From positions 1 through 46,114 of the IMG/VR virus record IMGVR_UViG_3300049595_002240: a stretch of 46,114 bases of DNA. One strand, 5' to 3'. Below are positions 1,257 through 45,207 of this stretch, piece after piece (within the stretch, counting starts at the first letter, position 1; each line of letters begins with the position of its first letter). The position numbers and the translations under genes are program-made. The stretch is from a virus. Under the pieces are notes generated by a model. That model searched no databases. It saw only the letters and a program-made list of their open reading frames with translations, and was not told the origin of the DNA.

Positions 1257-2201
1257 TCAGATTAGAAAAGCCTGAGATTACAGCTTATGTTAAGAAACTT
1301 TTGAAGGATTATTGTTTCCCTTCGTATCCACCACCTTTTGGGTAGTATTTCTTAGTGACGGTATTTTAGGTGTACCACTCCTTGAGGTTTGAATTACTCT
1401 ATCAGTACTTAACTCTTTCCGAGGTTGCCACCCCAGTTCGTCCTTGCGGGACTAAAGGTTTTTCTTAACAATACACATTGACTTGGGGTCTCTGTATGCA
1501 ATGAACGGCTCATTACTATGTAGTCACCTTTCACTCAAACCTGATGGACACTTTTCCTTTGTTATTTTGTAATAATTTTAGGGTTGTGTTGTAGATGTGT
1601 CAGAGTAGTGGTCCAACATAAGCTCTGTCTCCTTTTGAGCGACAGAATACTAAACTACTCCGTGAAGTGTCCCCACCTCCATATTTCAAGATTACTTCAT
1701 AAAGAGACCTTGGTAGGTCTTCCTTAGGGATAGTAGCGACACCACTCGTTCTCCATCTTACCTTTCGGTTTTAAGTCCTCTATCATATTGGGACCCGCAA
1801 TAGTGTAACTGGATGGTCACATTTCTTACAGAGTTCCTATGGGTTATTCTTATCGTTCTTCCGAACTCAACTTGAGAATCTACTTTCCCAAGTCACCCAA
1901 CCATTTTCCCTACGAAGTTATCCTCGGTACTTACGGTGTGGTGATATCCCACTTGTGTACTTGAGTTCAATTCCCCTTACGGGGTTTCAAACCGCAGTCT
2001 CCTCAACACAGGGGAGACCACTTTATCCTACTTTCGTAGTTTATTTAAGGACCATACACGGCCCATTATCGTTTATCAGTTACACTCAAGCTGCGGACTT
2101 TCTGCCATTTACTCGGTGGATAATATCACCGACACTTTGTGTTTCCTGAACGGATAATCTTTTTGTTTCAAAGAACGCTTTTTCAAAAAGAGAAGAAGGA
2201 G

Positions 2202-5653: not shown

Positions 5654-5681
5654 TAAAAAAACGGAGTTTATTGGACTCCGT
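5654..5681 (-). terminator. Intrinsic terminator overlapping the end of the methyltransferase gene
   Basis: On the minus strand ACGGAGT-CCAATAA-ACTCCGT is a perfect 7-bp hairpin followed by seven T. The hairpin starts inside the last codons of the methyltransferase gene and its loop contains the TAA stop. Confidence 0.9.
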
Positions 5682-6525
5682 TTTCAAATTGTAACTTCTG
5701 TTGGTTCTTTTGGTCAACAAAACTTTGTATTCGTTGTTTAGCAATTTCACAATAGTTTTCACTCAATTCAATACCAACCCATCTTCTGTCATGAACAACT
5801 GCTGCCACACAACTGGTTCCTGAACCATTGAAAGGGTCTAAAACAATATCATTTCTATATGATAATATCTTAATTGCCTTTTCGGGAATATCCATCGAGA
5901 ACGTTGCCTTTGTTAATGAACGAGTGTCAGCAAAGTATTTCCATTGTCCAAACACCAATTCCATGAACTCTTTCTTATCTTGTTCAGAATAAGCAACTTT
6001 GTTCTTTCCCTCTTCAGTTAGATAAGGTTCACCTTTCCATTGTGGTTCACCTTTAATTTTCTTAATATGAACTTTCTTATAAGCAAGAATAACACACTCT
6101 TTTGGGTTATAAATGTAAGGTGCCGATGGACTCATCCAAGAACCCCAAGCAGTTGTCTTACTTCTATGTGGCGAGTCTTCTTCAAGGTCAACAATACCGT
6201 AGAACTTAAACCCAACTTTTTTCATCACCTGATATATCTCAGAGGCAAAGAATACTCTACCACCACGAGCTTGTACATTTACCTCATATGGTATGTTAAT
6301 AGCCATTCTTCCATCGTCTTTAAGTAAACGATAAGCCTCCGTTAACCATTTTTCAGACCAATCCCAATATTCATCCATAACAATCTCATCATTATGTGTG
6401 TCGTATTGGATACCCACATTATATGGTGGTGACGTTACAACTAAATCAACCCAACCTTCAGGCATCTCTTTCATTACATCAATGGTGTCACCATTGATTA
6501 CCTTATTAATATAATTCTCAATCAT
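5668..6525 (-). CDS. Beta-class DNA amino-methyltransferase (N6-adenine or N4-cytosine)
   Basis: The 285-residue protein has catalytic motif IV near the N-terminus, DLVVTSPPYNVGI (about 29-41), and the SAM-binding motif I near the C-terminus, VLDPFNGSGTSCVAA (about 227-241), followed by RRWVGIELSENYC. The IV-before-I order is the beta class. The length suits a full enzyme. No restriction partner is adjacent, so it may protect phage DNA from host restriction or alter gene expression. Its start overlaps the 3' end of the DUF3310 gene by 8 nt. Target sequence is unknown. Confidence 0.93.
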   Translation of the reverse strand: MIENYINKVINGDTIDVMKEMPEGWVDLVVTSPPYNVGIQYDTHNDEIVMDEYWDWSEKWLTEAYRLLKDDGRMAINIPYEVNVQARGGRVFFASEIYQVMKKVGFKFYGIVDLEEDSPHRSKTTAWGSWMSPSAPYIYNPKECVILAYKKVHIKKIKGEPQWKGEPYLTEEGKNKVAYSEQDKKEFMELVFGQWKYFADTRSLTKATFSMDIPEKAIKILSYRNDIVLDPFNGSGTSCVAAVVHDRRWVGIELSENYCEIAKQRIQSFVDQKNQQKLQFENGVQ

Positions 6526-16892: not shown

Positions 16893-17735
16893 TCAATAAT
16901 TCATAATTAATAGTTCTTCCCCCATATTTTGTACCTTTCCTTTCTTTGCTGCCGCGGCTTTAGCAAATTCTTTCTTCTCCCATTTGTATTCCTCCTTTGG
17001 GAACCACTCATTCAACAACTGAAAATCGTAGTAAGATAAACTAAACTTACCTTTAATACCTTTCAAACAATCAGCCAATCTTTCGTGGTCTTCCCTATCA
17101 AAATCGTGGTTTGAGTAATAGTTCTCGGTTTTCCAGTACGGCGGGTCAACATAAAAGTATGTTGTTGGACTATCAAACTCTTTAATAACATCTTCAAAAT
17201 CACCCAATCTAAACTCTGATATTCTATTGAAATGTTCCACCCATTCAGGTTTAGATAATTTATCTCTAAAGGTAAGATATTTTGACTTATACTTTCCCTT
17301 TAAATCAATAAAACTTGATGTCTCAGGTTTTGAACCACTGAAAACCTGTGTCAGAACATAAGCATACTTCGCAGCAACACCATAATCAGGATAGTTAATT
17401 GTTAAACCATGAGAGAAAATTTCCTTTTGAAACTCATTAAATTGTTCTTTATAAACTGGTGGTGTTACTTCCACACCTTGTTGTTGACATGGGATACTAT
17501 TAATTGAGGATAACAGAGTCTCAGGGTCCTGAAGACACATAAACAAATTATAGTTCAAAGGATTAAAGTCGTTATAAACAACTCTTTTTAAATTAGGATA
17601 TTGTTTTAAATCCATGTTGAAGAAACACCAAAACATACCACCAAATGTTTCAACATACGTTTCCATATCTGTTGGGTAGAATGGGACAATCCACTTACCT
17701 ATCTTACTCTTACCTCCAATATATGATAATGCCAT
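16893..17735 (-). CDS. dam: Dam-type (D12 class) DNA N6-adenine methyltransferase
   Basis: The 280-residue protein has the alpha/D12 order: SYIGGKSKIGKWI at the N-terminus, SAM motif YVETFGGMFWCFFN (about 27-40), VVYNDFN (about 52), and catalytic DPPYWKTENYY (about 197-207) preceded by TYFYV. The length is typical of Dam and T4 Dam. It would methylate adenine in a short site, probably to protect phage DNA from host nucleases. No endonuclease partner is adjacent. The Ala/Lys-rich segment AKAAAAKKGK near the C-terminus is unusual for the family and may be a flexible loop. Confidence 0.93.
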   Translation of the reverse strand: MALSYIGGKSKIGKWIVPFYPTDMETYVETFGGMFWCFFNMDLKQYPNLKRVVYNDFNPLNYNLFMCLQDPETLLSSINSIPCQQQGVEVTPPVYKEQFNEFQKEIFSHGLTINYPDYGVAAKYAYVLTQVFSGSKPETSSFIDLKGKYKSKYLTFRDKLSKPEWVEHFNRISEFRLGDFEDVIKEFDSPTTYFYVDPPYWKTENYYSNHDFDREDHERLADCLKGIKGKFSLSYYDFQLLNEWFPKEEYKWEKKEFAKAAAAKKGKVQNMGEELLIMNY

Positions 17736-24629: not shown

Positions 24630-26366
24630 TTAAGAAAATACCACATAATCAAGAATATTTTCATTTATAATATCGTATAAAAATTCATTTGTCTGAGTGT
24701 CATATACCGATACTTTTTTAATTTCACTATTAAAAATATTAAATGACCAATGACCATAATTTTCCAAAGTATAATAATAAGTTTCATTACTATCATCTAA
24801 AAAATTAACAATTATTTTTCTTTCTGATTTAAAATTATTGTAATTATACGATAATACCATTTTAGAATCTTGTCCTAAAATATTATAAATTTTAATTGAG
24901 CATCCGTTAAACTTTGATGATATATTACTAACTGTCGTTTCAGTATTCCAAATCGTACCCACAAAATCTTCATTCATGGATATTTCACCATTTTTTCTAA
25001 TCAAAAATCCATTATCTTTTTGATTAATATTGTGATAAAGATATTTTTCAACATTAATAAAATCAGTACCAAATCCATTATTTTGTAAATAATTTTTATA
25101 ATCTTCCTCACAATTAATCCTATTAATTATCTGTTGGAAGTATTCTATTTCACAATAAAAATAATGGAACGAAACATCTCTACCTTCATTAAAATAAAAC
25201 ATTCCCTTTTTGTTTTGAGTAGAACAAATCACTGGTACAGTTGTCATATATTCATAACCTTCTTCACTATATAAATCATCAACTTCAATTCTTTGGAAAT
25301 GTGTAAACCCAAATGACTTACACAAATCTAATGAGTTAAACAAATTAACCATAACAGGTAATCCATGTTTTTGTATTGTATTTGTAACTTCATGAGTTGT
25401 TAATGAACCAAGGTTTTTCCAAAAAATAACTGGTTCGGAATTAGTGTATTCACCTTCAAAAAGAATGTTATTTGAGTTATATAAATGATAATCAACAATT
25501 TTTAATATATGTTCAGGAACAATAGTATTAGACACAAGAAGTATTGTATGGTTATACTTTTTTAAGTTATTAATACATAACTCCAACTTATTTAAAACAT
25601 TTTCATTATGGATAAAACAATCGACTATTGTTATTGTTTTAAATTCATCTTTAATATTTTGTCTTTTGAGTTCATTAGAAACTATTATGTTTTTTTTGTT
25701 TTTTTCTTCTTCCGAAATATTTGAAAACATACCATCATTTGATATTCGATAAATTCCCCCACATTTATGAATACACTTAATTAAACCGTGTTTACTAATT
25801 TCATAATTAAGCGGCCAATCAACATAAGGTAAATTTGTAAAATAATCTTTAATTAAATTTGGTATGTTTCTAAATACCCTCGCAAAAGATGCATGATTAA
25901 TAGTTAATAAATCATCTGTAGTTATATCGTCAAGAAATGAACTAATAAACAATTCAGGAACTGTAGGTATCTTGGTACCATCGGGATGCAAATATCTTGT
26001 TCCTGTACAAACCATACTATAATTTGGACTGTTCTCTAAAAATTCAACTTCTTCATTTAAGATTGTATAATTATCAAAATAATCATCTCCGTCAATATAA
26101 GCAATGTATTTTGTTTTACAGTAATTTAATAAAGTTCTAATATTTTCAAAACCTCCTAAATTAGTATCACCATTTAAAATTATTAAATTAGGGTATTTTT
26201 CTTTTAATTTAATTAAAACATCTTTAGTATTATCTGTCGACCCATCATCCCTTACTATCACATCAAACCCATAATTAATTTTTTGAGAGTATATTGAATC
26301 AATACACTCTTCAATATATTTTTCAAAATTATAAGATGGTACTACTACCGTAAGTATTTTTTTCAT
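24630..26366 (-). CDS. GT2 family glycosyltransferase with long C-terminal extension, 578 aa
   Basis: Residues 1-210 are a classic GT2 domain: LTVVVPSYNFEKYIEECIDS, VIVRDDGSTDNTKDVL, and IAYIDGDDYFDN with the DxD metal site. Residues 230-420 appear to form a second domain, possibly GT-like (TITIVDCFIHNENVLN, FQRIEVDDLYSEEGYEY). Residues about 450-578 are strand-rich and may be a carbohydrate-binding or linker module. Base composition is even more A+T-rich than in most flanking genes, which fits recent acquisition of this part of the island. Confidence 0.88.
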   Translation of the reverse strand: MKKILTVVVPSYNFEKYIEECIDSIYSQKINYGFDVIVRDDGSTDNTKDVLIKLKEKYPNLIILNGDTNLGGFENIRTLLNYCKTKYIAYIDGDDYFDNYTILNEEVEFLENSPNYSMVCTGTRYLHPDGTKIPTVPELFISSFLDDITTDDLLTINHASFARVFRNIPNLIKDYFTNLPYVDWPLNYEISKHGLIKCIHKCGGIYRISNDGMFSNISEEEKNKKNIIVSNELKRQNIKDEFKTITIVDCFIHNENVLNKLELCINNLKKYNHTILLVSNTIVPEHILKIVDYHLYNSNNILFEGEYTNSEPVIFWKNLGSLTTHEVTNTIQKHGLPVMVNLFNSLDLCKSFGFTHFQRIEVDDLYSEEGYEYMTTVPVICSTQNKKGMFYFNEGRDVSFHYFYCEIEYFQQIINRINCEEDYKNYLQNNGFGTDFINVEKYLYHNINQKDNGFLIRKNGEISMNEDFVGTIWNTETTVSNISSKFNGCSIKIYNILGQDSKMVLSYNYNNFKSERKIIVNFLDDSNETYYYTLENYGHWSFNIFNSEIKKVSVYDTQTNEFLYDIINENILDYVVFS

Positions 26367-26378
26367 TATTTATCCCTA

Positions 26379-26747
26379 TTATTTTTTTAGAATTATTGCA
26401 TTCCCCTCAATTAAAATTTCATCATCTTTAAAAATTATTGTTTTTAAAAAAAACTTATTTCCGTCTTTTTTATCAAGTTCTACAATCACCTCAATTTCAT
26501 CATTAATAAAACAAGGGTTTTTAAAAATCAAATTTTGTTGTAGATATATTGAACCCTTACCAGGATATACTTCAGATATCAATCTTGAAAAAAAGGAACT
26601 TAATAACATCCCGTGAGCAACTCTTTTACCAAAAATAGTTGATTTAGCGTATTCCTCATCTAAGTGTATTGGGTTTTTATCTCCTGATAACTCAGAGAAA
26701 TCTTTAACCATATCTTCAGAAATTAAAATTTTTTCAGATACTCGCAT
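26379..26747 (-). CDS. MaoC-like hotdog dehydratase
   Basis: The 122-residue protein carries the hydratase-2 motif FSELSGDKNPIHLDEEYA (about 17-34), with the catalytic Asp and His, followed by GKRVAHGMLLSSFFSRLI (about 44-61). This matches (R)-specific enoyl-CoA hydratases and related MaoC proteins at normal single-hotdog length. Within a glycan locus it may supply a 3-hydroxyacyl group, for instance for acylating an amino sugar, with the neighbouring hexapeptide transferase as partner. That link is inferred from position only. It overlaps the acyltransferase gene by 25 nt. Confidence 0.88.
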   Translation of the reverse strand: MRVSEKILISEDMVKDFSELSGDKNPIHLDEEYAKSTIFGKRVAHGMLLSSFFSRLISEVYPGKGSIYLQQNLIFKNPCFINDEIEVIVELDKKDGNKFFLKTIIFKDDEILIEGNAIILKK

Positions 26748-27286
26748 TCTAAATTTATTATATTTTTTTTTCTATCCTTTATTTCTTTAGCCGGTATTCC
26801 AACCGCAATTTTAGACTCAGATATGTTTTTATTTACTAATGATAAACTACCTATAGCACTATAATCTTCAATCTCAACATTTGGTAATATTATAGTACCC
26901 GCACCAATAATAACATGTTTACCTAATATGACTTTACCTGAAATCACATTTGTAAATTCTTTATTAACTGTGGGATTTGTCATGAATTCCCCACTATAAT
27001 CATCTGTTGATGTATATATGGATACTCTAGAAGATAGTCCTGAAAAATCTTTCATTACAATTTCTTCATTACCCATTAAACTACAGAAAATTGCAATATG
27101 GACATTATTACCTAACTTAATTCCTCCATTACCAGCACTTATCACACAAAAATCATCAATTCTAACATTATTACCCAATTCAATATTTTTAGGATTATAA
27201 ATTGAACATCTATTAGAAATTAAAACATTATCCCCAATAGATTTGAAACCTATTTCGACCAACTCATTTTTACTATAAAATCCCAT
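26723..27286 (-). CDS. Left-handed beta-helix (hexapeptide) acyltransferase
   Basis: The 187-residue protein consists of hexapeptide repeats ([LIV]-G-x4): IGDNVLI, IELGNNVRI, IKLGNNVHI, VILGKHVIIGAGTIILPNVEI, and IGSLSLVN, closing with the typical AVGIPAKEIKDRKK exit. The family transfers acetyl or other acyl groups from CoA to a sugar hydroxyl or amino group. With the DegT-like gene directly upstream (27286, touching) and the MaoC gene downstream, it resembles the acyl-transfer step for an amino-deoxy sugar such as Fuc3NAc or Qui3NAc. The exact product is not determined. Confidence 0.9.
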   Translation of the reverse strand: MGFYSKNELVEIGFKSIGDNVLISNRCSIYNPKNIELGNNVRIDDFCVISAGNGGIKLGNNVHIAIFCSLMGNEEIVMKDFSGLSSRVSIYTSTDDYSGEFMTNPTVNKEFTNVISGKVILGKHVIIGAGTIILPNVEIEDYSAIGSLSLVNKNISESKIAVGIPAKEIKDRKKNIINLECEYLKKF

Positions 27287-27939
27287 TATTTTTTATATAT
27301 TTCAAATTTTGATAAGTCAGGATATGGTAGTTCCAAATCTTCATTATGTTTAGGTGTACCATCCATGTTATAAAATTGATTCATAAGTAATAAACCTCTT
27401 GAAGCAATTTCAGGCATCATGTAAAAATTCCATCCTAACATATCAAAATTATCATCATGATACGATACTTCATTCCTACCTGAATATCTCGCTCGTTTAA
27501 ACCACTTGTAAGCCTCAAAATCGTCAGTTAAGATTGCACCACCTTTACCAAGTTTTAAGTGTTTATATGGGCCTGTAAATGATAAACACATATGTGTTCC
27601 TGGTATATACATATCACTTGTAAATCTTAATGCCGAATCCCAAACATTTGTTGGTGATAGTTGATACGCTCCTTTTAATGTTGACCCATAAACAGGTTCA
27701 AACTCGACTTTACCTCCAGCGTGGATAATCTCGCAAGGTACTGACGGGTATGTTCTACTTGGTATTTTAATTGTTTTACCATTAATTTTCTCATAATACA
27801 ACGCTAAAAATAAAGCGTTACTTTGATTATCAACTGTAACAGCATATGGTGCACCAGCATATTCAGCTAATTGTTCTTCAAATTTTTTTGTGACATCGTA
27901 AACCGATGATGACAATGTACCAGGTGTTCTTAATTTCAT
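27286..27939 (-). CDS. Short DegT/DnrJ-type sugar aminotransferase, 217 aa
   Basis: The protein aligns by eye with the N-terminal two thirds of DegT/DnrJ/EryC1/StrS PLP enzymes: FEEQLAEYAGAPYAVTVDNQ, KIPSRTYPSVPCEIIHAGG, WDSALRF (the Asp that contacts the PLP ring), and CLSFTGPYKHLKLGKGGAIL, which contains the expected PLP lysine. Full-length members have about 360-400 residues, so the C-terminal small domain is missing. The reading frame is intact and flush with its neighbours, so this looks like a natural short form rather than a fresh frameshift. It may be a reduced enzyme, or inactive. Confidence 0.82.
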   Translation of the reverse strand: MKLRTPGTLSSSVYDVTKKFEEQLAEYAGAPYAVTVDNQSNALFLALYYEKINGKTIKIPSRTYPSVPCEIIHAGGKVEFEPVYGSTLKGAYQLSPTNVWDSALRFTSDMYIPGTHMCLSFTGPYKHLKLGKGGAILTDDFEAYKWFKRARYSGRNEVSYHDDNFDMLGWNFYMMPEIASRGLLLMNQFYNMDGTPKHNEDLELPYPDLSKFEIYKK

Positions 27940-27940
27940 A

Positions 27941-30547
27941 TTATTTTATTTTTTTAGCAATATAATTATCAGTTGTTGTATGCGTAATTGTAAATCCAAA
28001 TTCATGTAGTTTTTGTATTATTTTTTGATTACTATTTTCATCATTAGTTTTTTCAACACACAATAATCTACATTTTTTTAATTTATTTTGTATTTCATCT
28101 ATTACAATTAATTCATGCCCTTCAACGTCAATATTAATGAAATCATAGGTATCTTTTTCTAAATCATAATATTCAACAATATCATTAAAATTGTATACTA
28201 TTATTTGATTTTCTTTCCAACTCATTCCAATAAATCTTTCTTTATTTTCAGGATGTATAGTAGATAATATTCCCTGCGGAGCATCGCTCACATCCCAGTT
28301 CAAACTTTCATGTATATTTATCACATCTGTTTTATTTGAAACACCCGCATTAATACATTTAATATTTTTATTTTTTTTATATAAATTCTGTAATTTTAAA
28401 AAAGCAGTTTGGGTAGGTTCAACACAAACTCCATCCCATCCTAATAATGCAAGCGCGTGTGTATTTGAAAATGTTTTACCGTCATTCGCACCAATATCTA
28501 AAAATTTATTTGTTTTTGGGTCTTCCCCATCAAAAAATGATAGAATTATTTCCTGTTCATTGTTTTGTGAAAAATCTAAAATGTCATTGTTAACTTTATT
28601 TTTAGGTTTAGCAAAGATTACTCCATGTTTAGCGTTTTTATCCGCTTTAGTTTTACGTCCCATTTCATAAATGATAATATCATATTCAAAATCATTTTTT
28701 TCAAGTTTTTCAAGTATGATATTAATTTGTCCATTGGTATTTTCATGAAACTCAATCATAAATCTATCCACCAATCCAATCTGTTCATCAGTAATTGATT
28801 CAAAAATTGGGTATTCACCACCCTCAATATCACATTTAAATAATGATATTCTACCATAGTCATTATCTTTGTAGATATCATCAATAGTAATAGTGTCACA
28901 ACTAATTAAATTGTTAAGTTGACCATATTCTCCCACATTACCGTCAAAAACATTTGACCCAATAGTTGAATTTTCTTTTGAAAATCTGAAATCAATCTTG
29001 GTATGTTCCTTGTAAACAGGGTTCATATAAATGGTTGATTTAGATAAATCACCATCTAAATGATATTCAATACTTTCCCTTAGGTATGGATTTGCCTCAA
29101 CTAAAATAACTTTTTTAGCATTTATGGTATACATGTACTTAGCGAATAACCCAACATTAGCACCAATATCAATTACAGTATCAAGATTTTCTAACTTTAA
29201 ATCATCAAAACATCTATCAACAAAAAACTCATAATAGTTAATGTAATTACAATCCAAAGGTTTAAATTTAAATTCAGGTATTCTTGGGTAGAAATTAGGA
29301 TTAACAATTAACTCTTGACCAAAAACTAATTCGTTTGTTTCCACATCATAGAACTCAACTAAAAATCCTCTAAAGTTAGGATTGTCTTTGAATTTTTTAA
29401 TATGAATTGGGATAGGCATTGTCCAATAAAATATTGGGTATTCCAAAGGTAAATTAAACCAATACATCGGAGCCTTTGAAGTTATGTCTCTAATACTAAC
29501 ATTAAAATCAAACTTTTTATTGCCGGTATAGTTAATGGTAATCTGATTATTATCACCATTAAAATCAAAACTGAAAAGAGAGTCAATACCCCCAACATTT
29601 AATACATCCATCATATTATTTACATCTTTATCTATATCTCCAGTTAAAAATGTAACTTGAGGTAGTTTATCATATTTTCCACAATACACATCCAAATTAT
29701 ACATCATCATAGGAATACCATATTCAATAGCCTCCTTAATGGCAATTGGATTTAATTCTTTATTATTTCTATCCCCTTTTGATGGGAACATAAACAAATC
29801 GGACGCTTCCAAAAATTCATTTACATTATCCTTTTCACCCCAAATAATACAGTTTTCAGGTTTGTTATTCATCAGTGGTTCCCAATAACTTCTAAAGTTA
29901 TCTGCCTGATTTCCAATGAAATGAAATTTAATTTTACTATTTTCTAACTTACGAGCAATTTCAAAAATGTATTTTTGATTTTTTCTTTCAGTGAATAACC
30001 CAACATTAACAACATGTTTCCACCCTTTATCGAACCCAAGTTTTTCTTGGAGCATGTTCTTTCTTTTTTCTCTGTTTTCAATAGGATACTCAATTACCTC
30101 ATAAGGTATGTCAAACATTGAATACTGAATAGCATTAAACACACTAACAAAGATAAACTTGTCAGGAAACCAAACCTTAGATGTTGGTTTAAAACTTGAA
30201 TCGTGCGTGGTTTCAAATATTTTATATGGACGATTTTGTCTATAAATTTGTCTTGTAATGTTATTATCCATGAAAAATTCAGGGAACTCCTCCATTGATA
30301 TAATGTCAGGTTGGAAATCGTTAATAACATCAATTAAAACATTCTTATCATCCCATAGAGTAATAAGATTGTCCTCACCAATCATATTTTTAATTCTGTT
30401 CTTCTGAACAACAAAATCCCAAGAATAACACCCGTATTCAACACACTTTATAATATAATCGTCTTTAAGAAGTTGAATCTTATTCGTAGTAACCTGTGGT
30501 AGTCCCCCAGTAGATAGGTGTGGGACTATAAATAATATTTTCTTCAT
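27941..30547 (-). CDS. Triple fusion: GT4 glycosyltransferase plus two FkbM-type methyltransferases, 868 aa
   Basis: The ATG at 30547 (MKKILFIVPHLSTGGLPQVT) is chosen over an upstream TTG. Residues 1-330 are a GT4/GT-B enzyme (VVNVGLFTERKNQKYIFEIA, ASDLFMFPSKGDRNNKELNP). A beta linker (about 340-450) follows. The first FkbM methyltransferase (about 455-650) has TVIDIGANVGLFAKYM, VILVEANP and LFKCDIEGGEYPIFES. The second (about 675-868) has KFLDIGANDGKTF, VCVEPTQTAF and FINIDVEGHELIVIDE. FkbM enzymes methylate sugar hydroxyls. Two copies could methylate two positions or two sugars added by the same protein. It is the first gene of the island, so transcription probably enters here from the divergent intergenic region at 30548-30618. 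Confidence 0.9.
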   Translation of the reverse strand: MKKILFIVPHLSTGGLPQVTTNKIQLLKDDYIIKCVEYGCYSWDFVVQKNRIKNMIGEDNLITLWDDKNVLIDVINDFQPDIISMEEFPEFFMDNNITRQIYRQNRPYKIFETTHDSSFKPTSKVWFPDKFIFVSVFNAIQYSMFDIPYEVIEYPIENREKRKNMLQEKLGFDKGWKHVVNVGLFTERKNQKYIFEIARKLENSKIKFHFIGNQADNFRSYWEPLMNNKPENCIIWGEKDNVNEFLEASDLFMFPSKGDRNNKELNPIAIKEAIEYGIPMMMYNLDVYCGKYDKLPQVTFLTGDIDKDVNNMMDVLNVGGIDSLFSFDFNGDNNQITINYTGNKKFDFNVSIRDITSKAPMYWFNLPLEYPIFYWTMPIPIHIKKFKDNPNFRGFLVEFYDVETNELVFGQELIVNPNFYPRIPEFKFKPLDCNYINYYEFFVDRCFDDLKLENLDTVIDIGANVGLFAKYMYTINAKKVILVEANPYLRESIEYHLDGDLSKSTIYMNPVYKEHTKIDFRFSKENSTIGSNVFDGNVGEYGQLNNLISCDTITIDDIYKDNDYGRISLFKCDIEGGEYPIFESITDEQIGLVDRFMIEFHENTNGQINIILEKLEKNDFEYDIIIYEMGRKTKADKNAKHGVIFAKPKNKVNNDILDFSQNNEQEIILSFFDGEDPKTNKFLDIGANDGKTFSNTHALALLGWDGVCVEPTQTAFLKLQNLYKKNKNIKCINAGVSNKTDVINIHESLNWDVSDAPQGILSTIHPENKERFIGMSWKENQIIVYNFNDIVEYYDLEKDTYDFINIDVEGHELIVIDEIQNKLKKCRLLCVEKTNDENSNQKIIQKLHEFGFTITHTTTDNYIAKKIK

Positions 30548-30618
30548 ACCTAAAAAAAATAACAATATTTATTTCATAAATCCATAGAATATAGTATCTT
30601 TACAAAAAAATATACACA

Positions 30619-31007: not shown

Positions 31008-31928
31008 CTACCCCCTCTTGTGTTTAACGTACATATTAACATAGAAATCACCAATACCGTCATTTTTAAAACCCTTACCTTTAACACGTAGGGGTTTTGT
31101 TGTATCTATCTCTTCAGGTAATTTAATATTTAGACTACCTGATGGATGTGGGACATCTAAAGTATCTTTATTAAAATCATCTAACGACATTTGATAATTG
31201 TATACTAAGTCGTTGTTTACCTTATCAAAACCATCCTGTGGTGTTATTTTAACTTTTAATATTAAATCACCAAACAAACCATTATGATAATCACCCATAG
31301 ATGATGCTTTAATCAATTGACCATCAGATATACCATGAGGTAAATTGATATTAATAGTTTCAAACTTATTATTTTTACCTTCACCAGCACAGGAGAAACA
31401 AACATTCTTTAATGAATATCCCTTACCTTGACATGAGTTACATGTTGTCTGTAAAATATTTGAGAAGAAAGAATTACCAACTCTTTGTACTATTCTACCT
31501 GAACCATTACAAGTGTTACAAGTAATTCTATCCCCACCCTGTCCATTACAGGTGTTACAATTAACTTTTCGACTAAACTGAACATCTATATTATGAGCTA
31601 AAAAAGAATCAATTGTACCTATATTTAAATCAACTACTTTATCAGGTGCTCTTTTCTGTTTTGGACCCGCCATATTATTAAACAAATCGTTAAACATACT
31701 AAATGGGTCTGAGTCAAACCCTCCAAACGGATTACTACCACCTAAATCATATTGTCTTCTTTTTTCATCATCACCCAAAGTATCATACGCTTGAGAAATT
31801 TTCTTAAATGTCTCTTCATTACCACCTTTATCAGGGTGATGTTCAACTGCTAATTTTCGATACGCCTTTTTAATTTCATCTTGTGTTGATGACCTATCGA
31901 CTCCAAGTATTTCGTAAAAATTTTCCAA
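31008..31928 (-). CDS. dnaJ: DnaJ (Hsp40) co-chaperone, type I, shortened
   Basis: The J domain occupies residues 1-65 ([27 protein letters not shown] with the HPD motif). A short G/F region ([16 protein letters not shown]) follows. The zinc-finger domain has four CxxCxGxG repeats: [24 protein letters not shown] and CFSCAGEG (about 120-195). The substrate domain ends near residue 306. Bacterial type I DnaJ has about 370-380 residues, so linker and C-terminal dimerisation parts are trimmed. It should recruit host DnaK to phage proteins, perhaps in virion assembly or replication. No phage DnaK or GrpE is nearby. Confidence 0.96.
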
Positions 31929-31965: not shown

Positions 31966-32595
31966 ATGGATTCAAAATACCATATAATTTTATTTAAAAA
32001 TAACAAGAAAAAAAAGAAACTTAAATCCTTTGTTAGAGAAAATCTTGCAAATGAATATTATAAAAATTTAATATCAAAGTCAAATGAAATTATTTTTGAT
32101 AAGAAATTTGAAAATGGTTATGAGTGTCAGTTTTTCCTTGGTATTGTATCTGACAAATATGTCGATAATAATATTCATTATTTAGATGAGTTTGGTAGGA
32201 ATAAATCAATCGACCCTAAGATTGACAATAACAACTATATACAAAAAATTAACGTGTATAGATTAGAAGAAAGTCTTTTTGATGTAAAAAATGATAATAA
32301 GATTAGTGTCGACTACTTTATTAAGAATTATATAAAAGATAAATTGTATCTTATCTCACAAATTAAAAATAAATTTGTTTTACAAAATGATGACGATTTT
32401 TCATTATTTAGTTTAAAGAATGAAGAAGATTGTGAAAGATTTTTAACAATACTGAGTACTTTGGAAGTTAAATCAAAACTAATGATTGTTAGAGATGTCT
32501 CTCAGTCACAGAGAAAATACCTATACAACTTATTGATTGAGAAAGGATTTAATAAAAAGTTCTTGTATACAAGTTTTACTACTTATCCAAGATAA
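31966..32595 (+). CDS. Hypothetical Lys-rich protein, 209 aa
   Basis: There is no recognised domain. The N-terminus (residues 1-30) is very basic (FKNNKKKKKLKSFVREN). The middle alternates helical and strand-like stretches with many Asn and Asp, and the end has SQRKYLYNLLIEKGFNKKFL. The gene is on the plus strand, divergent from dnaJ, and its last bases overlap the converging minus-strand 73-aa gene by 17 nt. A TATAAATT sequence upstream of the ATG is one base from the TATAAATA motif. Confidence 0.7.
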   Translation: MDSKYHIILFKNNKKKKKLKSFVRENLANEYYKNLISKSNEIIFDKKFENGYECQFFLGIVSDKYVDNNIHYLDEFGRNKSIDPKIDNNNYIQKINVYRLEESLFDVKNDNKISVDYFIKNYIKDKLYLISQIKNKFVLQNDDDFSLFSLKNEEDCERFLTILSTLEVKSKLMIVRDVSQSQRKYLYNLLIEKGFNKKFLYTSFTTYPR

Positions 32596-32800
32596 AAATA
32601 AAATCAGTCCCTGAAATATCTACTTTAAATTGTTCAGCCTCGCTATCTTTACCAGTATTAAATGTTGATAACGATGTTTCAAATTCTTCCAAAGGTAACT
32701 CAAATATAATTGTAACTTTACCTTTTAATAAAGTCTGTGAAGCGTCAGCAATAATCGCCAATTTACTTAGAAATTCATCACTTTCCTTATTCTCTGCCAT
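32579..32800 (-). CDS. Hypothetical acidic protein, 73 aa
   Basis: Starts MAENKESDEFLSKLAIIADA and has a probable helix followed by strands (KVTIIFELPLEEF, KVDISGTDFIFIL). It carries no known motif. The start lies inside the preceding 63-aa gene, in another frame. It is the last gene of a chain of five small overlapping genes (32579-33694) that includes the H1-like gene. Confidence 0.62.
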   Translation of the reverse strand: MAENKESDEFLSKLAIIADASQTLLKGKVTIIFELPLEEFETSLSTFNTGKDSEAEQFKVDISGTDFIFILDK

Positions 32801-32958
32801 AATGTTAATTTTTTTTCAGGTTTAAAGAAATCTTCTTTTTTGAACTGTTTGAACAATTCCGCCATTTCTTTTTTTTGTCTTTCTAAATCATCTTTATCCT
32901 TCTTCTGCGATGATGCTAGGGAGTTCAATAACTTCTGAGTTTGGTCTAGATTTAACAT
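32767..32958 (-). CDS. Hypothetical helical protein, 63 aa
   Basis: A continuous amphipathic, Lys/Glu-rich helix is predicted (LLNSLASSQKKDKDDLERQK to FKQFKKEDFF), ending KLTLWQRIRKVMNF. It overlaps the upstream 147-aa gene by 65 nt and the downstream gene by 34 nt. Its own ATG and clean stop support it as real, but function is unknown. Confidence 0.55.
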   Translation of the reverse strand: MLNLDQTQKLLNSLASSQKKDKDDLERQKKEMAELFKQFKKEDFFKPEKKLTLWQRIRKVMNF

Positions 32959-33337
32959 CGTTTAAACTTATTTTTTTATTAATATCAAATTTAAAATTTT
33001 TAAGATTATCTAATGACTCTTTATCAAAAATAGTTTTTAATTCATTAATCTTAGATTCCAATAGTCTTTCTTTCTCCTCTCGCTCTAAATTATAATTAAT
33101 AATATTCAAGATGTTTTCCTGAATAAGATTAATATTTTTTTCATCATATTCACTAACAAATGATAAATTCAATAAGTCATTTGCAGTACCGTTATTAACA
33201 AACTTATCCTCAATTATGTGTTTTTTTAACATTTTCCAAGTCATCGGGAAAGCAACATCAAAAACTAAGTAATTTTCTAATTTCCTAATTTGTGTTAAAT
33301 AATTTATAATTGGTGTTAATTCTTTATATATACTCAT
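32894..33337 (-). CDS. Hypothetical helical protein, 147 aa
   Basis: The protein is mostly helical (ELTPIINYLTQIRKLENYL, INLIQENILNIINYNLEREE, SKINELKTIFDKESLDNL). No domain is recognised. It could be a small structural or assembly protein given its place upstream of the virion-core-like genes in the same direction. It overlaps its neighbours at both ends. Confidence 0.68.
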   Translation of the reverse strand: MSIYKELTPIINYLTQIRKLENYLVFDVAFPMTWKMLKKHIIEDKFVNNGTANDLLNLSFVSEYDEKNINLIQENILNIINYNLEREEKERLLESKINELKTIFDKESLDNLKNFKFDINKKISLNDVKSRPNSEVIELPSIIAEEG

Positions 33338-33525
33338 GATAAATCAATAATGTAGGTTATAATATAACTTAAAGTTAAATAGAAAGTTAAGAGGTCCCTA
33401 CCACTTAACTTTAACCTTTCGGGTGAAGTTTGTAGTAGGGCTCTTAAAAAAATAAATGAAATTCTAAACACATTTAAAATGCTAAGAACAAAGAAAAATA
33501 AAAATATTGACGTTATATTAAGCAT
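33334..33525 (-). CDS. Small membrane protein, 63 aa
   Basis: Two hydrophobic segments (residues 5-28, FLFFFVLSILNVFRISFIFL; and about 46-61, LLTFYLTLSYIITYI) flank a short polar loop containing TSPERLKLSGRD. No motif is recognised; it may be a small two-span membrane protein. Its ATG overlaps the last codons of the H1-like gene, and its stop overlaps the start of the next gene by 4 nt. Confidence 0.62.
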   Translation of the reverse strand: MLNITSIFLFFFVLSILNVFRISFIFLRALLQTSPERLKLSGRDLLTFYLTLSYIITYIIDLS

Positions 33526-33694
33526 CCTTCTTTTTACCTTCTAAAATTTCTCCTCTAAATTGTTGTAATAACGCCTTTAACTCTTGAGCACTTTTTCTAG
33601 CTCGAGTTCCAGCACTTTTATTACCGTTATAGAATTTTCCGGCATCAACAGAAAGTAATTCAGTTAATTCTTTGATTTTTTCTACAGTCTCCAT
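33518..33694 (-). CDS. Histone H1-like DNA-binding protein (Bacteroidetes Hc1 type), 58 aa
   Basis: ATG at 33694 to TAA at 33518. The sequence KIKELTELLSVDAGKFYNGN then KSAGTRARKSAQELKALLQQ matches the compact histone H1-like proteins of Bacteroidetes (pattern 'DAxKFYxxxNKAAGTRxRKxxQxLKxLxQxxRxEI'). The length (58) is normal for that family. It should bind DNA non-specifically and could compact phage or host DNA or regulate transcription. It is clearly recognisable as host-derived, and is embedded in a run of small overlapping genes. Confidence 0.9.
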   Translation of the reverse strand: METVEKIKELTELLSVDAGKFYNGNKSAGTRARKSAQELKALLQQFRGEILEGKKKDA

Positions 33695-33748
33695 TTAATT
33701 AAAAATTAAAAATTGTTTATTATAATATCAAGAATAAAGGTTTTTAAA

Positions 33749-34222
33749 TTATTGTAAATTTACTTTGACATTTTTTTCTAATGATTTATACAAAGTAGTT
33801 AACAAATCTAAATCAGATTTAGTAAAGATTGTATCCATATTAAAAACTTCAGAGAAAAACTTAACTAAAGACATTCTAACCTCAGTAACTTTTTGAGAAT
33901 AAAAAGTTTCATCTAAAAAACTTCTTATAAAAGTTTTGTGTTCACCATCATATTCAAAAAATACACCTTCTTTATTAAAATTTTTAATGGTTTTTTCCCA
34001 ACACCAATCAAAGTGTTTTAAATCATCTTCTTCAGTTATTTTAATATTTGTTTCCATAGTTGTTTCATGACCAAGATATGTACTGTAAACCAAATTTACT
34101 AAGGATATAACAAAATCTTGGAACAACTCCATTTTCAAATAACATATATTATTTGAATCAACCCAAAAATCAAACTCTTCGTCGTCAACGGGTTTAGATA
34201 TATATAAAAAAAAATTCTCCAT
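33749..34222 (-). CDS. Hypothetical protein, 157 aa
   Basis: A soluble protein rich in Phe, Asp and Glu (PVDDEEFDFWVDSNN, LKHFDWCWEKTIKNFNKEG) with predicted helices at the C-terminus (LDLLTTLYKSLEKNVKVNL). No signal peptide or known domain is recognised. It is upstream of the H1-like gene and downstream of the probable internal-protein gene in the same direction. Confidence 0.72.
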   Translation of the reverse strand: MENFFLYISKPVDDEEFDFWVDSNNICYLKMELFQDFVISLVNLVYSTYLGHETTMETNIKITEEDDLKHFDWCWEKTIKNFNKEGVFFEYDGEHKTFIRSFLDETFYSQKVTEVRMSLVKFFSEVFNMDTIFTKSDLDLLTTLYKSLEKNVKVNLQ

Positions 34223-37004: not shown

Positions 37005-37272
37005 TTGTTTTCTTTTTAATTACGTTTATGTTGTTATCAACCAATTGTATTTCTTGGGTTATTTCTAATATATTTGTATCGAGTTCCGCTAATTTATTAT
37101 CTAATTCTTTATTCAAAATTGAGACTGAATCAATCTTTGTTTGGATACTATCAATTGATGTTTGATATTTTTTAACATCAGTTTTAATTTGATTTGTTGT
37201 AATAATATTATACACAAACAAACCGATAATAATTAAAAATAAAATTCCAATTATATTATTCTTATTGTTCAT
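36928..37272 (-). CDS. Inner-membrane-anchored coiled-coil protein (i-spanin-like)
   Basis: From ATG at 37272 this is 114 residues: MNNKNNIIGILFLIIIGLFV is a single N-terminal membrane segment, followed by a long heptad-like periplasmic coiled coil (KYQTSIDSIQTKIDSVSILN, LAELDTNILEITQEIQLVDN) and a C-terminal tip LGNDDLQHFFTDKYGK. This topology matches inner-membrane spanins (Rz). It overlaps the following exported protein by 77 nt in another frame and the upstream 201-aa gene by 11 nt. An amidase-like gene lies just beyond. The alternative is a structural anchor. Confidence 0.65.
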   Translation of the reverse strand: MNNKNNIIGILFLIIIGLFVYNIITTNQIKTDVKKYQTSIDSIQTKIDSVSILNKELDNKLAELDTNILEITQEIQLVDNNINVIKKKTNEKVASVDNLGNDDLQHFFTDKYGK

Positions 37273-37867
37273 TTGTCTCAGGTTTTGTTTTCTTTCTACT
37301 AGCAAGAACTTTAGCCCATTTTGACTTAAATTTCTCATAGAAAGTTTGAAGTTTATTAATACCATCTAAAAAGTTTTCATCAACTTTTACCATATCACCT
37401 GAAATGTAGATACCATTACTTTCACCTATAGTGAAATAAAAATTTAAATCAAAATCAACAATCTTACCACTCCAATCAACATTACTCTGATAAACATTTA
37501 ATTGACCAAAATTCACCAAATCAGAAACTTCGGAAACAAACTCGTCCATCGTTTCTTGGAAATTTTTCTTATCATCAGTTGTTAATTCAACATCTTGAGT
37601 GCTATTACCATGTAAAACTAATAATCCACCTGAAATACGATATCCCTGTTCAAATTCACTACTTTTACCATCAGTGTCTTCAATTTCATCTTCAACCGCA
37701 CCTGGTACATTATACCTATCATTAATATTAGGAGTATCTCTAATTGCGTCCTCAACTAAATAAGTTTTCTTTATTTCACTAATGTGTTCAGATATATTAG
37801 GATTTTTACTATTAATTAAATCTCTAATTATATTAATCTGATTTTTGATGTCTTGGTTATCCTTCAT
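37262..37867 (-). CDS. Hypothetical protein, 201 aa
   Basis: The start (MKDNQDIKNQINIIRDLINS) looks like the short amphipathic head found in several virion proteins of T4-like phages. The centre (about 60-110) is acidic, followed by a beta-rich part (NVDWSGKIVDFDLNFYFTIG, GIYISGDMVKVD) and a basic tail (KSKWAKVLASRKKTKPE). No known domain is present. Its neighbours are an amidase-like gene upstream (11-nt overlap) and the spanin-like pair downstream. Confidence 0.7.
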   Translation of the reverse strand: MKDNQDIKNQINIIRDLINSKNPNISEHISEIKKTYLVEDAIRDTPNINDRYNVPGAVEDEIEDTDGKSSEFEQGYRISGGLLVLHGNSTQDVELTTDDKKNFQETMDEFVSEVSDLVNFGQLNVYQSNVDWSGKIVDFDLNFYFTIGESNGIYISGDMVKVDENFLDGINKLQTFYEKFKSKWAKVLASRKKTKPETNEQ

Positions 37868-43656: not shown

Positions 43657-44007
43657 TTAATCTATTTTAGCTGGTCGGTTTACTTCAAACCATTCAATGA
43701 AAGCGTTGATAGCCCATACTGCCCCTGATGCAAATAACCCATCAAAGAACCATGAAATGTATGGACTTGTTCCGAAAAACTGATAAGTCGGTGAGAATAA
43801 AACTGTTCCTAAGAAGAACCCTATCCAAGTGGAACAACACATCATACAGGATAAAATACCTGAAATGAAATTGAATGTGTTTGAAAAAATTAAATCGGAG
43901 TTTCCATAAGCTTTGATGAAATCTCTCATTCCTTTGAAGATGGTTCCATAAACCATAATTGTTGAAAACCCGTAGGCTAAAATCATAAATAATACTAACT
44001 GTGTCAT
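43657..44007 (-). CDS. Membrane protein, 116 aa
   Basis: Three probable membrane segments: residues 3-24 (QLVLFMILAYGFSTIMVYGT), about 46-73 (FISGILSCMMCCSTWIGFFL) and about 85-105 (WFFDGLFASGAVWAINAFIE). The middle one contains a CMMCC cysteine cluster. No family is assigned. Multi-span small membrane proteins in T4-like phages include holin-like and superinfection-exclusion proteins, but nothing specific is visible. The start overlaps the previous gene by 4 nt. Confidence 0.72.
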   Translation of the reverse strand: MTQLVLFMILAYGFSTIMVYGTIFKGMRDFIKAYGNSDLIFSNTFNFISGILSCMMCCSTWIGFFLGTVLFSPTYQFFGTSPYISWFFDGLFASGAVWAINAFIEWFEVNRPAKID

Positions 44008-44456
44008 ATTCTGTTTTTTAAGTTTGAATTCTGTAGGTAGAAAGCATAAGAAGTTTTTGTCATATCTTCAAGCTCATTTACCTTTCTTGTTAATTCTTTT
44101 ATTGTGTTATTTTTATCACTTAATTGTCTGTTTAGTTCAAAAAGGGTTTCTTGTAGTTTTCCACACTCCACTTCCTTTTTATCTTCCAATTTACCTTTAA
44201 GAATGTAAATTTCATTTTGTAGTTCTTCAATCTTTGAGTTATCTTCAACAATAACTTCCTTCTCAAATTCTCTGTCAATTACATCAGGTAAGTTCCCTTG
44301 GTTAAGTAATCCATATTTTTCAATATAGTATCCTTTACGGAAACATAGTTTAACAAAACCATTAGGGTCAGTTATTTCATTAATCTTACAGAACGAGTTG
44401 AAATCCTCAACATCCTGTTTAGATAACTCAATAGTTAACGAATTTTTCTGTTCCAT
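44004..44456 (-). CDS. Ribbon-helix-helix-like and coiled-coil protein, 150 aa
   Basis: From ATG at 44456. The first 45 residues (NSLTIELSKQDVEDFNSFCK, DPNGFVKLCFRKGYYIEKYG) resemble a strand plus two helices, as in ribbon-helix-helix DNA-binding proteins. The rest is a long coiled coil (SKIEELQNEIYILKGKLEDK, LFELNRQLSDKNNTIKELTR). It may dimerise and bind DNA. It overlaps the gp47 gene end (29 nt), so it is likely expressed with the recombination genes. Confidence 0.68.
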   Translation of the reverse strand: MEQKNSLTIELSKQDVEDFNSFCKINEITDPNGFVKLCFRKGYYIEKYGLLNQGNLPDVIDREFEKEVIVEDNSKIEELQNEIYILKGKLEDKKEVECGKLQETLFELNRQLSDKNNTIKELTRKVNELEDMTKTSYAFYLQNSNLKNRI

Positions 44457-45207
44457 TTTCAATATCTTCGTATGAGTTTATTCTAAATGATATGAAAGGT
44501 TTTGGGTTGAATAAATCCACGGTTGTATACTCATCTTTTTCCACATCATAAATTCCATATCCGTGTTTGGTTACCGTTTCACCATAATTCTGCCCAATGG
44601 TTGAACCAATCATATAAGCCTTCTTACCACCAGGTATATCAAAGATTTGTCTCTTGTGAATATCACCACATAATACCAAGTCACATCCATCAAACTTTGA
44701 TGTTTCAAACCCATCTTCAAACTTAAATCCTAAGTTGGTTGTAAGTCCCTGAACTGGTCCGTGAAATAATCCAATTTTAACTCTATCAGATTTTTCAATC
44801 GTAGGTGGGATGTTATGGTCCATAAGTGAATACACACACCAATCAATATTTTCATCCTGATATACACCTCTGTTCTTGTAGTAAACCACCATATCATTTT
44901 TAAGTGAGTCAACCACAGGTGTTAAAGCGTCCAATCGTTCCATATTGTTTTCAAGGAAGTCGTGATTACCAGGTATTAATATTGTTTTAGCAATCTTTGA
45001 ACACTCCGTCAATACCCAAGCGATGAACTCAACAAGTTCAGGTGTCATTTGATTTTTTGAGTGAACCAAATCCCCCGTGAATACAATTCTATCAGGAGCA
45101 ATATCTTTCCATTGTTTAAAAGCTTCTTCTAAAATTGACTTATATAGTTGGTGGTCTTTAAACAACCTAACGTGTAAATCAGAGAAATGAACTAACTTTT
45201 TTATCAT
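44428..45207 (-). CDS. 47: gp47-like recombination nuclease subunit (Mre11/SbcD-type metallophosphoesterase)
   Basis: The 259-residue protein has all metallophosphoesterase motifs: HFSDLHVRL (D and H ligands), VFTGDLVHS, LIPGNHDFLE, GLFHGPVQG and LVLCGDIHKRQIF. Length is somewhat below T4 gp47 (about 340), with a shorter C-terminal cap. It is the Mn-dependent nuclease partner of gp46 in DNA-end resection and recombination-dependent replication. Three small genes lie between the pair. It overlaps the zinc-ribbon gene upstream by 4 nt. Confidence 0.95.
   Translation of the reverse strand: MIKKLVHFSDLHVRLFKDHQLYKSILEEAFKQWKDIAPDRIVFTGDLVHSKNQMTPELVEFIAWVLTECSKIAKTILIPGNHDFLENNMERLDALTPVVDSLKNDMVVYYKNRGVYQDENIDWCVYSLMDHNIPPTIEKSDRVKIGLFHGPVQGLTTNLGFKFEDGFETSKFDGCDLVLCGDIHKRQIFDIPGGKKAYMIGSTIGQNYGETVTKHGYGIYDVEKDEYTTVDLFNPKPFISFRINSYEDIENGTEKFVNY

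What the first reader, a model, noticed from the sequence alone, without database searches (positions are those of the whole stretch)
33518..33694. Phage-encoded histone H1-like protein
The 58-residue protein is close to the H1-like (Hc1) proteins of Bacteroidetes. A phage copy could compact injected or packaged DNA, silence host transcription or compete with the host nucleoid. It is also a strong pointer to host phylum.
Basis: partly seen in the sequence, partly recalled or inferred. Interest (0 to 1): 0.55.

Follow-up and report, generated by a model that had tools for sequence, protein, structure and literature searches.

The report
Core Hc1-domain protein of aquatic jumbo phages
A large phage carries a tiny protein of the bacterial 'histone H1-like' family, and its relatives keep it as one of their best-conserved genes, but it lacks the DNA-gripping tail of the best-studied family member, so what it does is still untested.

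Summary
ORF 33518-33694 (-) encodes 58 residues that match Pfam Hc1 (PF07432) at E 4.5e-20 over the whole model. Phage copies are already in print: four complete 'moraphages' (PMC12619734), with compaction at packaging suggested there. (1) It is not a recent host capture. In 80 contigs chosen by a different gene, it is present in all 76 that reach its place, always 3.3-5.0 kb from that gene. Both trees put the phage rows outside the main Bacteroidota clade, though AU tests do not formally exclude nesting (p 0.134 and 0.053). (2) It is only the N-terminal part of chlamydial HctA/Hc1; the lysine-rich DNA-binding tail is absent. (3) It is a weak host marker: Fibrobacterota, Planctomycetota, Rhodothermota, a cyanophage and two huge phages carry the family too. 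New here: it is among the slowest-evolving genes of its 13-kb neighbourhood, overlaps or abuts a following ORF (91 of 91 distinct loci), has a conserved upstream ATAAAC element, and is predicted to be a helical hairpin with an invariant basic motif. Best guess: a small, probably dimeric nucleic-acid-binding architectural protein of phage DNA. DNA binding, timing and virion location are untested.

The parts
33518..33694 (-). 58-aa Hc1-domain (PF07432) protein; predicted helical hairpin, helices 2-22 and 26-57, with GNKSAGTRARK motif at residues 24-34
33715..33721 (-). AATAAAC upstream element; its core ATAAAC starts 20-31 nt before the ATG in 58 of 93 distinct upstreams; promoter-like by position, function inferred
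   Evidence: AATAAAC as such is not enriched in the window as a whole (28 found, 26.1 expected)
33334..33525 (-). 63-aa hydrophobic ORF whose start overlaps the end of the Hc1 gene by 8 nt; likely translationally coupled (inferred)
   Evidence: found by tblastn in 68 of 80 loci; an ORF of at least 45 codons starts from 29 nt before to 4 nt after the end of the Hc1 gene in 91 of 91 distinct loci, exactly 8 nt before it in 51
32894..33337 (-). 147-aa conserved syntenic ORF, unknown function, next in the same run of genes
   Evidence: 79 of 80 loci; no Pfam or PHROGs family at E 0.01
32767..32958 (-). 63-aa conserved syntenic ORF, unknown function
   Evidence: 53 of 80 loci
32579..32800 (-). 73-aa conserved syntenic ORF, unknown function
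   Evidence: 71 of 80 loci
33749..34222 (-). 157-aa conserved syntenic ORF directly upstream of the Hc1 gene, unknown function
   Evidence: 80 of 80 loci
31008..31928 (-). DnaJ (syntenic neighbour)
   Evidence: Pfam DnaJ E 2.4e-24; 78 of 80 loci

Best explanation
A tail-less Hc1-family protein that is an old core gene of a lineage of T4-like (gp23-type capsid) jumbo phages, probably the moraphages or close kin, which are predicted to infect Bacteroidota. SHOWN: family membership, fixed gene position, single copy in each of 18 contigs checked, strong conservation, absence of a C-terminal tail, confident helical-hairpin model, invariant basic turn and helix start (GN[K/N]xAGTRxRK, plus R47), overlap with or abutment to a following ORF, conserved upstream element. 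INFERRED: the hairpin dimerises (as the N-terminal part of chlamydial Hc1 does), which puts two basic motifs on one particle; these hold DNA or RNA backbone and bridge or organise phage DNA, most likely during replication or before packaging. It acts as an abundant low-specificity architectural protein beside the host's own Hc1, rather than as a compactor through a lysine-rich tail.
For: PF07432 E 4.5e-20. Present in 76 of 76 contigs that reach the place, out of 80 chosen by the 201-aa neighbour; mean identity to the window 74%, against 39-63% for most neighbours, 72% for the sigma factor and 70% for the SbcC-like protein. Lowest pN/pS, 0.28. One copy in 18 of 18 related contigs; gp23-type capsid gene in 15 of those 18. 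Invariant N25 A28 G29 T30 R31 R33 R47 in 79 phage and bacterial sequences. AlphaFold2 mean pLDDT 95.8, two helices. pI 9.4, net +3. ATAAAC in the last 60 nt of 62 of 93 distinct upstreams, 58 of them starting at -20 to -31, and also shortly upstream of the capsid gene in 6 of the 8 contigs seen.
Against: Nothing here shows DNA or RNA binding, dimerisation, expression or presence in virions. A net charge of +3 is modest for a DNA compactor, and 86 distinct phage proteins have a median of +2 (a few of these rows are truncated). In chlamydial Hc1 the lysine-rich C-terminus, absent here, is the DNA-binding part (PMC2848022 passages); and in Chlamydia itself nucleoid condensation persisted when both histone genes were knocked down together (PMC13317200 passage). 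The late-promoter lead is weak: ATAAAC precedes 21 of 184 ORFs in capsid-region stretches, against 16 for the next-best permutation of its letters, and several of the 21 are orthologues; two of the 8 capsid-gene upstreams seen lack it; and two of 25 other gene families compared also have it fairly often, 0.44 and 0.25.
Confidence: 0.45

Rival explanations
1. Host-nucleoid poison: the phage subunit pairs with the host's own short Hc1 through the shared hairpin and so displaces, silences or inactivates the host nucleoid protein during takeover.
For: The family is common in Bacteroidota (117 of 198 genomes), the likely host phylum, and the motif is shared while the helices differ. Position in a run of small ORFs of unknown function fits a takeover module.
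Against: An interference protein would be expected to turn over and vary with host; this one is among the most conserved genes of the region and present in 76 of 76 contigs. Copies in a cyanophage and in huge phages of unknown host may need no Hc1-bearing host. The upstream element recurs before the capsid gene in 6 of 8 contigs seen, which hints weakly at late rather than early expression.
Confidence: 0.2
2. Virion protein: the protein is packaged with phage DNA and helps condense or release it; PMC12619734 suggested compaction during packaging for moraphages.
For: Small, basic, conserved; weak late-type upstream element shared with the capsid gene in 6 of 8 contigs seen.
Against: No proteomics. 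In the window it lies among dnaJ, an amidase gene and the sigma-factor gene, and in the large contigs it is far from the capsid gene (positions).
Confidence: 0.2
3. Not a nucleic-acid protein: a protein adaptor (helical-hairpin dimer) that binds a phage or host partner, for instance RNA polymerase or the product of the overlapping hydrophobic ORF.
For: The hairpin fold is generic; weak fold neighbours include small helical proteins such as CDK2AP1, D-63 and Aqs1 (all E above 0.3; that these are protein-binding dimers is recalled). Tail absent. Overlap with a following ORF.
Against: Invariant R31, R33, R47 and near-invariant K26 and K34 in proteins of several phyla that should have different partners fit a phosphate-binding surface better; fold matches are not significant.
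Confidence: 0.15
4. Recent capture of a Bacteroidota host gene.
For: The phylum carries the family; the AU test does not reject phage plus Flavobacteriaceae as one clade (p 0.134; p 0.053).
Against: Present in 76 of 76 contigs at one place; bacterial rows only 38-54% identical; the main Bacteroidota rows form a separate clade at 100/99 and 100/100.
Confidence: 0.05

Closest known systems
Histone H1-like protein (PF07432) of moraphages (PMC12619734, Arch Virol 2025)
   Same: Same Pfam family in large, mostly freshwater phages with Bacteroidota as predicted hosts; some encode DnaJ; the same gene may well be meant.
   Different: The paper reports it in four complete genomes and suggests packaging; in the passages and sections read it gives no synteny, conservation, tail or motif analysis of this protein. 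Membership of this contig in the moraphages was not tested.
Short Hc1 proteins (about 58 aa) of Bacteroidota, Fibrobacterota, Planctomycetota
   Same: Length, hairpin motif GNKxAGTRxRK, family
   Different: 38-54% identical; main Bacteroidota rows in a separate clade; no window neighbours beside the gene in 80 bacterial loci except one weak methylase match in L113
Chlamydia HctA/Hc1
   Same: N-terminal half is similar (NCBIfam NF051889 positions 5-59)
   Different: 18.3 bits against a cut-off of 100; no lysine-rich C-terminal DNA-binding domain
'Histone H1' of Synechococcus phage S-SRM01 and Hc1 in uncultured huge phages LR756500 and LR745206
   Same: PF07432 member confirmed by Pfam for S-SRM01; the other two were found by tblastn
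   Different: 37.5-51% identical; no window neighbour found within 6-8 kb, so probably separate acquisitions
Eukaryotic linker histone H1
   Same: The name, by way of chlamydial Hc1
   Different: H1's winged-helix core (recalled) is not seen; the model here is a two-helix hairpin, and none of the 50 PDB matches displayed of 180 is a linker histone by its description

Membership tests
Pfam Hc1 PF07432 | Score over the curated cut-off across the full model | tested here: met
   71.7 bits against 23.5, positions 1-57/57
Pfam Hc1 PF07432 | GN.xAGTRxRK turn (signature derived here, not a published definition) | tested here: met
   N25 A28 G29 T30 R31 R33 R47 invariant in 79 sequences
HctA equivalog (NCBIfam NF051889) | Score over the curated cut-off of 100 bits, 121 positions | tested here: not met
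   18.3 bits, positions 5-59 only
Chlamydial Hc1 | Lysine-rich C-terminal nucleic-acid-binding domain | tested here: not met
   Protein ends at residue 58; 86 distinct phage relatives are at most 65 aa, median 59; domain role from PMC2848022 passages
Chlamydial Hc1 | Dimerisation through the N-terminal part | not testable with these tools
   Only monomer prediction is available
Chlamydial Hc1 | DNA binding and compaction | not testable with these tools
   Needs purified protein
Recently captured Bacteroidota gene | Phage rows nested inside the Bacteroidota clade | tested here: inconclusive
   Not nested in either best tree; AU p 0.134 and 0.053, 60 columns
Moraphages | Marker-gene (MCP, TerL, PolB) clade of PMC12619734 | not tested
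   I did not look for the named genomes and made no marker tree; shared traits only (gp23-type MCP in 15 of 18 related contigs; DnaJ and a sigma factor)
Eukaryotic linker histone H1 | Winged-helix globular domain (recalled) | tested here: not met
   Two-helix hairpin, pLDDT 95.8

The most novel reading that the evidence does not exclude
A minimal, tail-less Hc1 hairpin is an indispensable chromatin protein of a whole lineage of T4-like jumbo phages: it coats or bridges phage DNA late in infection in hosts that use their own version of the same protein, so that phage and host compete with two variants of one nucleoid protein. The short Hc1 motif GNKxAGTRxRK would then define a DNA-binding unit that works without the chlamydial tail.
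Probability: 0.22. Interest if true: 0.6.

Novelty: new member of a known kind. Interest (0 to 1): 0.32.

Why it matters
Short Hc1 proteins are widespread in Bacteroidota and occur in neighbouring phyla. My searches of the held library found no functional study of them: the only paper naming PF07432 is the moraphage paper; a search with Hc1, Bacteroides and related terms listed six papers, none about short Hc1 proteins by title; and 'histone H1-like protein' with Bacteroidota gave only the moraphage paper. A phage lineage that keeps one, nearly unchanged, in every contig that reaches its place says the short form does something important and gives a simple system for finding out what. It also warns against using such genes alone for host calls or as signs of recent gene capture.

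Tried and rejected
Hairpin downstream of the gene (33372-33456, minus strand): folds well (z -3.98), but it lies largely inside a conserved small ORF, and an exact pattern from it matched only the window's own stretch L001 among the 161 loci then held; no Rfam family there at gathering threshold. Not pursued as an RNA.

ATAAAC as a proven late promoter: only weakly enriched upstream of capsid-region ORFs (21 of 184 against 16 for the next permutation), and absent from 2 of the 8 capsid-gene upstreams seen; kept as a lead. T4-type TATAAAT stands in only 0.13 of Hc1 upstreams.

Solved-structure relatives: none by sequence (best E 0.15, chain 5tgw_A; profile best E 1.5). Foldseek matches are generic hairpins with no E at or below 0.001. 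Fold comparison cannot decide function for a 58-residue hairpin.

PHROGs: no family at E 0.01; the identical protein in L002 matched one family of unknown function, at E 0.028.

Recent host capture: rejected as the most likely origin (synteny, identity, trees), but not formally excluded by the AU tests.

Papers: PMC177758 and PMC1217221 (Hc1 domain studies) are not held, so the domain statement rests on passages of PMC2848022 that cite them. For PMC12619734 I saw search listings, passages, the whole of section 12 and part 1 of 2 of section 11; for PMC13317200, passages; for all others, listings only.

Rows dropped: of 243 loci searched for Hc1, 4 gave none because the contig ends first. For the first tree, rows under 45 aa, rows without an ATG start, rows with X or a stop, and duplicates were dropped, leaving 159 rows; phage rows more than 90% identical were thinned from 83 to 57, leaving 133. 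For the second tree ten long-branch rows were dropped and phage rows were cut at random to 34 plus the window, leaving 102. The structure alignment used 76 of those sequences.

Full report
What is there. On the minus strand, 33518-33694 is an ATG-started ORF of 58 codons. It matches Pfam Hc1 (PF07432) over the full model at E 4.5e-20, 71.7 bits against a cut-off of 23.5, once in this 46,114-base virus record. No PHROGs family matches at E 0.01. The gene has 33% GC, against 30% for the window.

Relatives. One scan of IMG/VR with the protein gave 239 confirmed relatives, of which 80 were kept (L002-L081; identity 74-100%). Among 50,697 GenBank phage records only four match at E 0.01: Synechococcus phage S-SRM01 in two records (annotated 'histone H1', 41%) and two uncultured huge phages. 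In 198 genomes drawn from one phylum (centre G001, a Pedobacter, so Bacteroidota), 117 carry the family.

Core gene, not a passenger. To avoid choosing by Hc1 itself, I took 80 contigs by a different neighbour, the 201-aa ORF at 37262-37867. Hc1 is found in 76 of 80; the other four contigs end before its place. It lies always 3.3-5.0 kb from that neighbour. In the Hc1-chosen set the surrounding genes keep place and strand: the 157-aa ORF in 80 of 80 loci, the 147-aa ORF in 79, the 499-aa ORF in 79, DnaJ in 78 and an opposite-strand 209-aa ORF in 78. In the neighbour-chosen set Hc1's mean identity to the window is 74%; the sigma factor has 72%, the SbcC-like protein 70%, and most other neighbours 39-63% (two poorly sampled rows, a 128-aa ORF in 13 loci and an 89-aa ORF in 19, read 81% and 73%). 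Median pN/pS is 0.28, the lowest of the families tabulated, next to 0.29 and 0.30 for sigma and SbcC-like (pS is near saturation, so read it as a ranking). Eighteen contigs, 16 of them 185-326 kb and two 55 kb, carry exactly one copy each, and 15 of these 18 have a gp23-type capsid gene (the three without are the two 55-kb contigs and the 185-kb one), so this is a T4-like jumbo-phage lineage. The capsid protein of one of them (L274) has as nearest records Microcystis phage Mel-JY01, an uncultured huge phage and Flavobacterium phage immuto, 40-45% over 56-66% of its length.

Is it a host gene? In a tree of 133 rows and 60 columns the 58 phage rows are one side of a branch (83/85, not strong) and the 51 main Bacteroidota rows are another (100/99); Fibrobacterota, Rhodothermota, Planctomycetota, a few further Bacteroidota-labelled rows and the other three phage copies form the rest. 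Without ten long branches the Bacteroidota core is again one side (100/100), the rest another (100/99), and the phage rows lie between them, no longer one clean side (2 changes). So the phage proteins are not nested in Bacteroidota, but direction and date cannot be read: forcing phage plus Flavobacteriaceae together is not rejected (p 0.134; p 0.053). S-SRM01 and the two huge phages carry Hc1 among unrelated genes: no window neighbour was found within 6-8 kb of it, which points to separate acquisitions. Hc1 is therefore a weak host pointer. Other hints do favour Bacteroidota: 0 of 42 ORFs of 80 aa or more have a Shine-Dalgarno-like core (that Bacteroidota lack it is recalled), and the moraphage paper predicts Bacteroidota for 23 of 25 genomes.

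Anatomy. AlphaFold2 on 76 aligned sequences gives helices 2-22 and 26-57 at mean pLDDT 95.8, pTM 0.74. Across 79 phage and bacterial sequences N25, A28, G29, T30, R31, R33 and R47 are invariant, and G24, K26, A32 and K34 nearly so. The turn and the start of helix 2 thus carry a fixed basic motif. pI is 9.4 and net charge +3. NCBIfam's HctA model aligns only at positions 5-59 of 121, 18.3 bits against a cut-off of 100: the C-terminal half is missing, and the relatives measured are short too (86 distinct phage proteins up to 65 aa, 74 bacterial up to 63, three other phage copies up to 71). Even in Chlamydia the role in compaction is less simple than the name suggests: nucleoid condensation persisted when both histone genes were knocked down together (PMC13317200, passage).

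Gene arrangement. In 91 of 91 distinct phage loci an ORF of at least 45 codons begins between 29 nt before and 4 nt after the end of the Hc1 gene, in 51 of them with the same 8-nt overlap. In the window it is the hydrophobic 63-aa ORF 33334-33525. Upstream, ATAAAC occurs in the last 60 nt of 62 of 93 distinct sequences, 58 of them starting 20-31 nt before the ATG. In the zone 11-36 nt before the ATG it is in 0.63 of 90 Hc1 upstreams, 0-0.17 for 23 of 25 other gene families, 0.44 and 0.25 for two. It also stands shortly before the capsid gene in 6 of the 8 contigs seen; G009 and G011 lack it. Over capsid-region ORFs in general the enrichment is small (21 of 184, next permutation 16), and AATAAAC as such is not enriched in the window (28 found, 26.1 expected). 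I read it as a promoter-like element of the Hc1 transcription unit, possibly late; this is inference.

Mechanism. Most likely a homodimeric hairpin that presents two GNKSAGTRARK motifs and R47 to nucleic-acid backbone and so bridges or organises phage DNA. Shown: membership, synteny, conservation, missing tail, overlap with the next ORF, motif, monomer model. Inferred: dimer, binding, timing. The rivals (host Hc1 poisoning, packaged virion protein, protein adaptor) remain open; none can be settled by sequence.

Novelty. Phage-encoded PF07432 proteins are in print: PMC12619734 reports them in four complete moraphages and suggests compaction at packaging (passages); database entries named 'histone H1' exist for other phages. 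My searches found no other paper naming PF07432 and none joining H1-like proteins with Bacteroidota phages beyond that one. This is a new member of a known kind. What is added: lineage-wide synteny, rank in conservation, separation from Bacteroidota, absence of the DNA-binding tail, the overlapping ORF and the upstream element. Whether this contig is a moraphage in the strict sense was not tested.

Noticed in passing
window 1269-1662 (-): A full-length GOLLD RNA (RF02032, 322 bits, gathering 150), the giant ornate non-coding RNA, in the same phage contig.
   Followed up: no
window 33334-33525 (-), hairpin 33372-33456: A very stable predicted hairpin (z -3.98) lies largely inside the small hydrophobic ORF that follows Hc1; the ORF is found in 68 of 80 loci, an exact pattern from the hairpin only in the window's own stretch among 161 loci.
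   Followed up: partly
window 24630-30565 (-): A block that reads like glycosyltransferase and sugar-related genes (my reading of the translations; no family search was run on them) is present in only 4-5 of 80 related loci, whose flanks reach about 8 kb, beside genes that nearly all share: probably a swapped island, perhaps for surface or virion glycans.
   Followed up: no
window 5668-6525 (-) and 16893-17735 (-): Two DNA methylases (N6_N4_Mtase and D12 adenine class).
   Followed up: no
window 44004-44462 (-): A 152-aa ORF family whose upstream regions also often carry ATAAAC (0.44 of 32): a possible second gene with the same control element as Hc1.
   Followed up: no
L297:12281-12742 (+) and equivalents in L295, L299, L302: A conserved ORF of about 154 aa (starts MKKGK, contains YGTVDS), about 2.5-3.6 kb upstream of the capsid gene, with the ATAAAC element at -23 to -27 in four contigs; its only PHROGs match is weak (E 0.052) and of unknown function.
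   Followed up: partly
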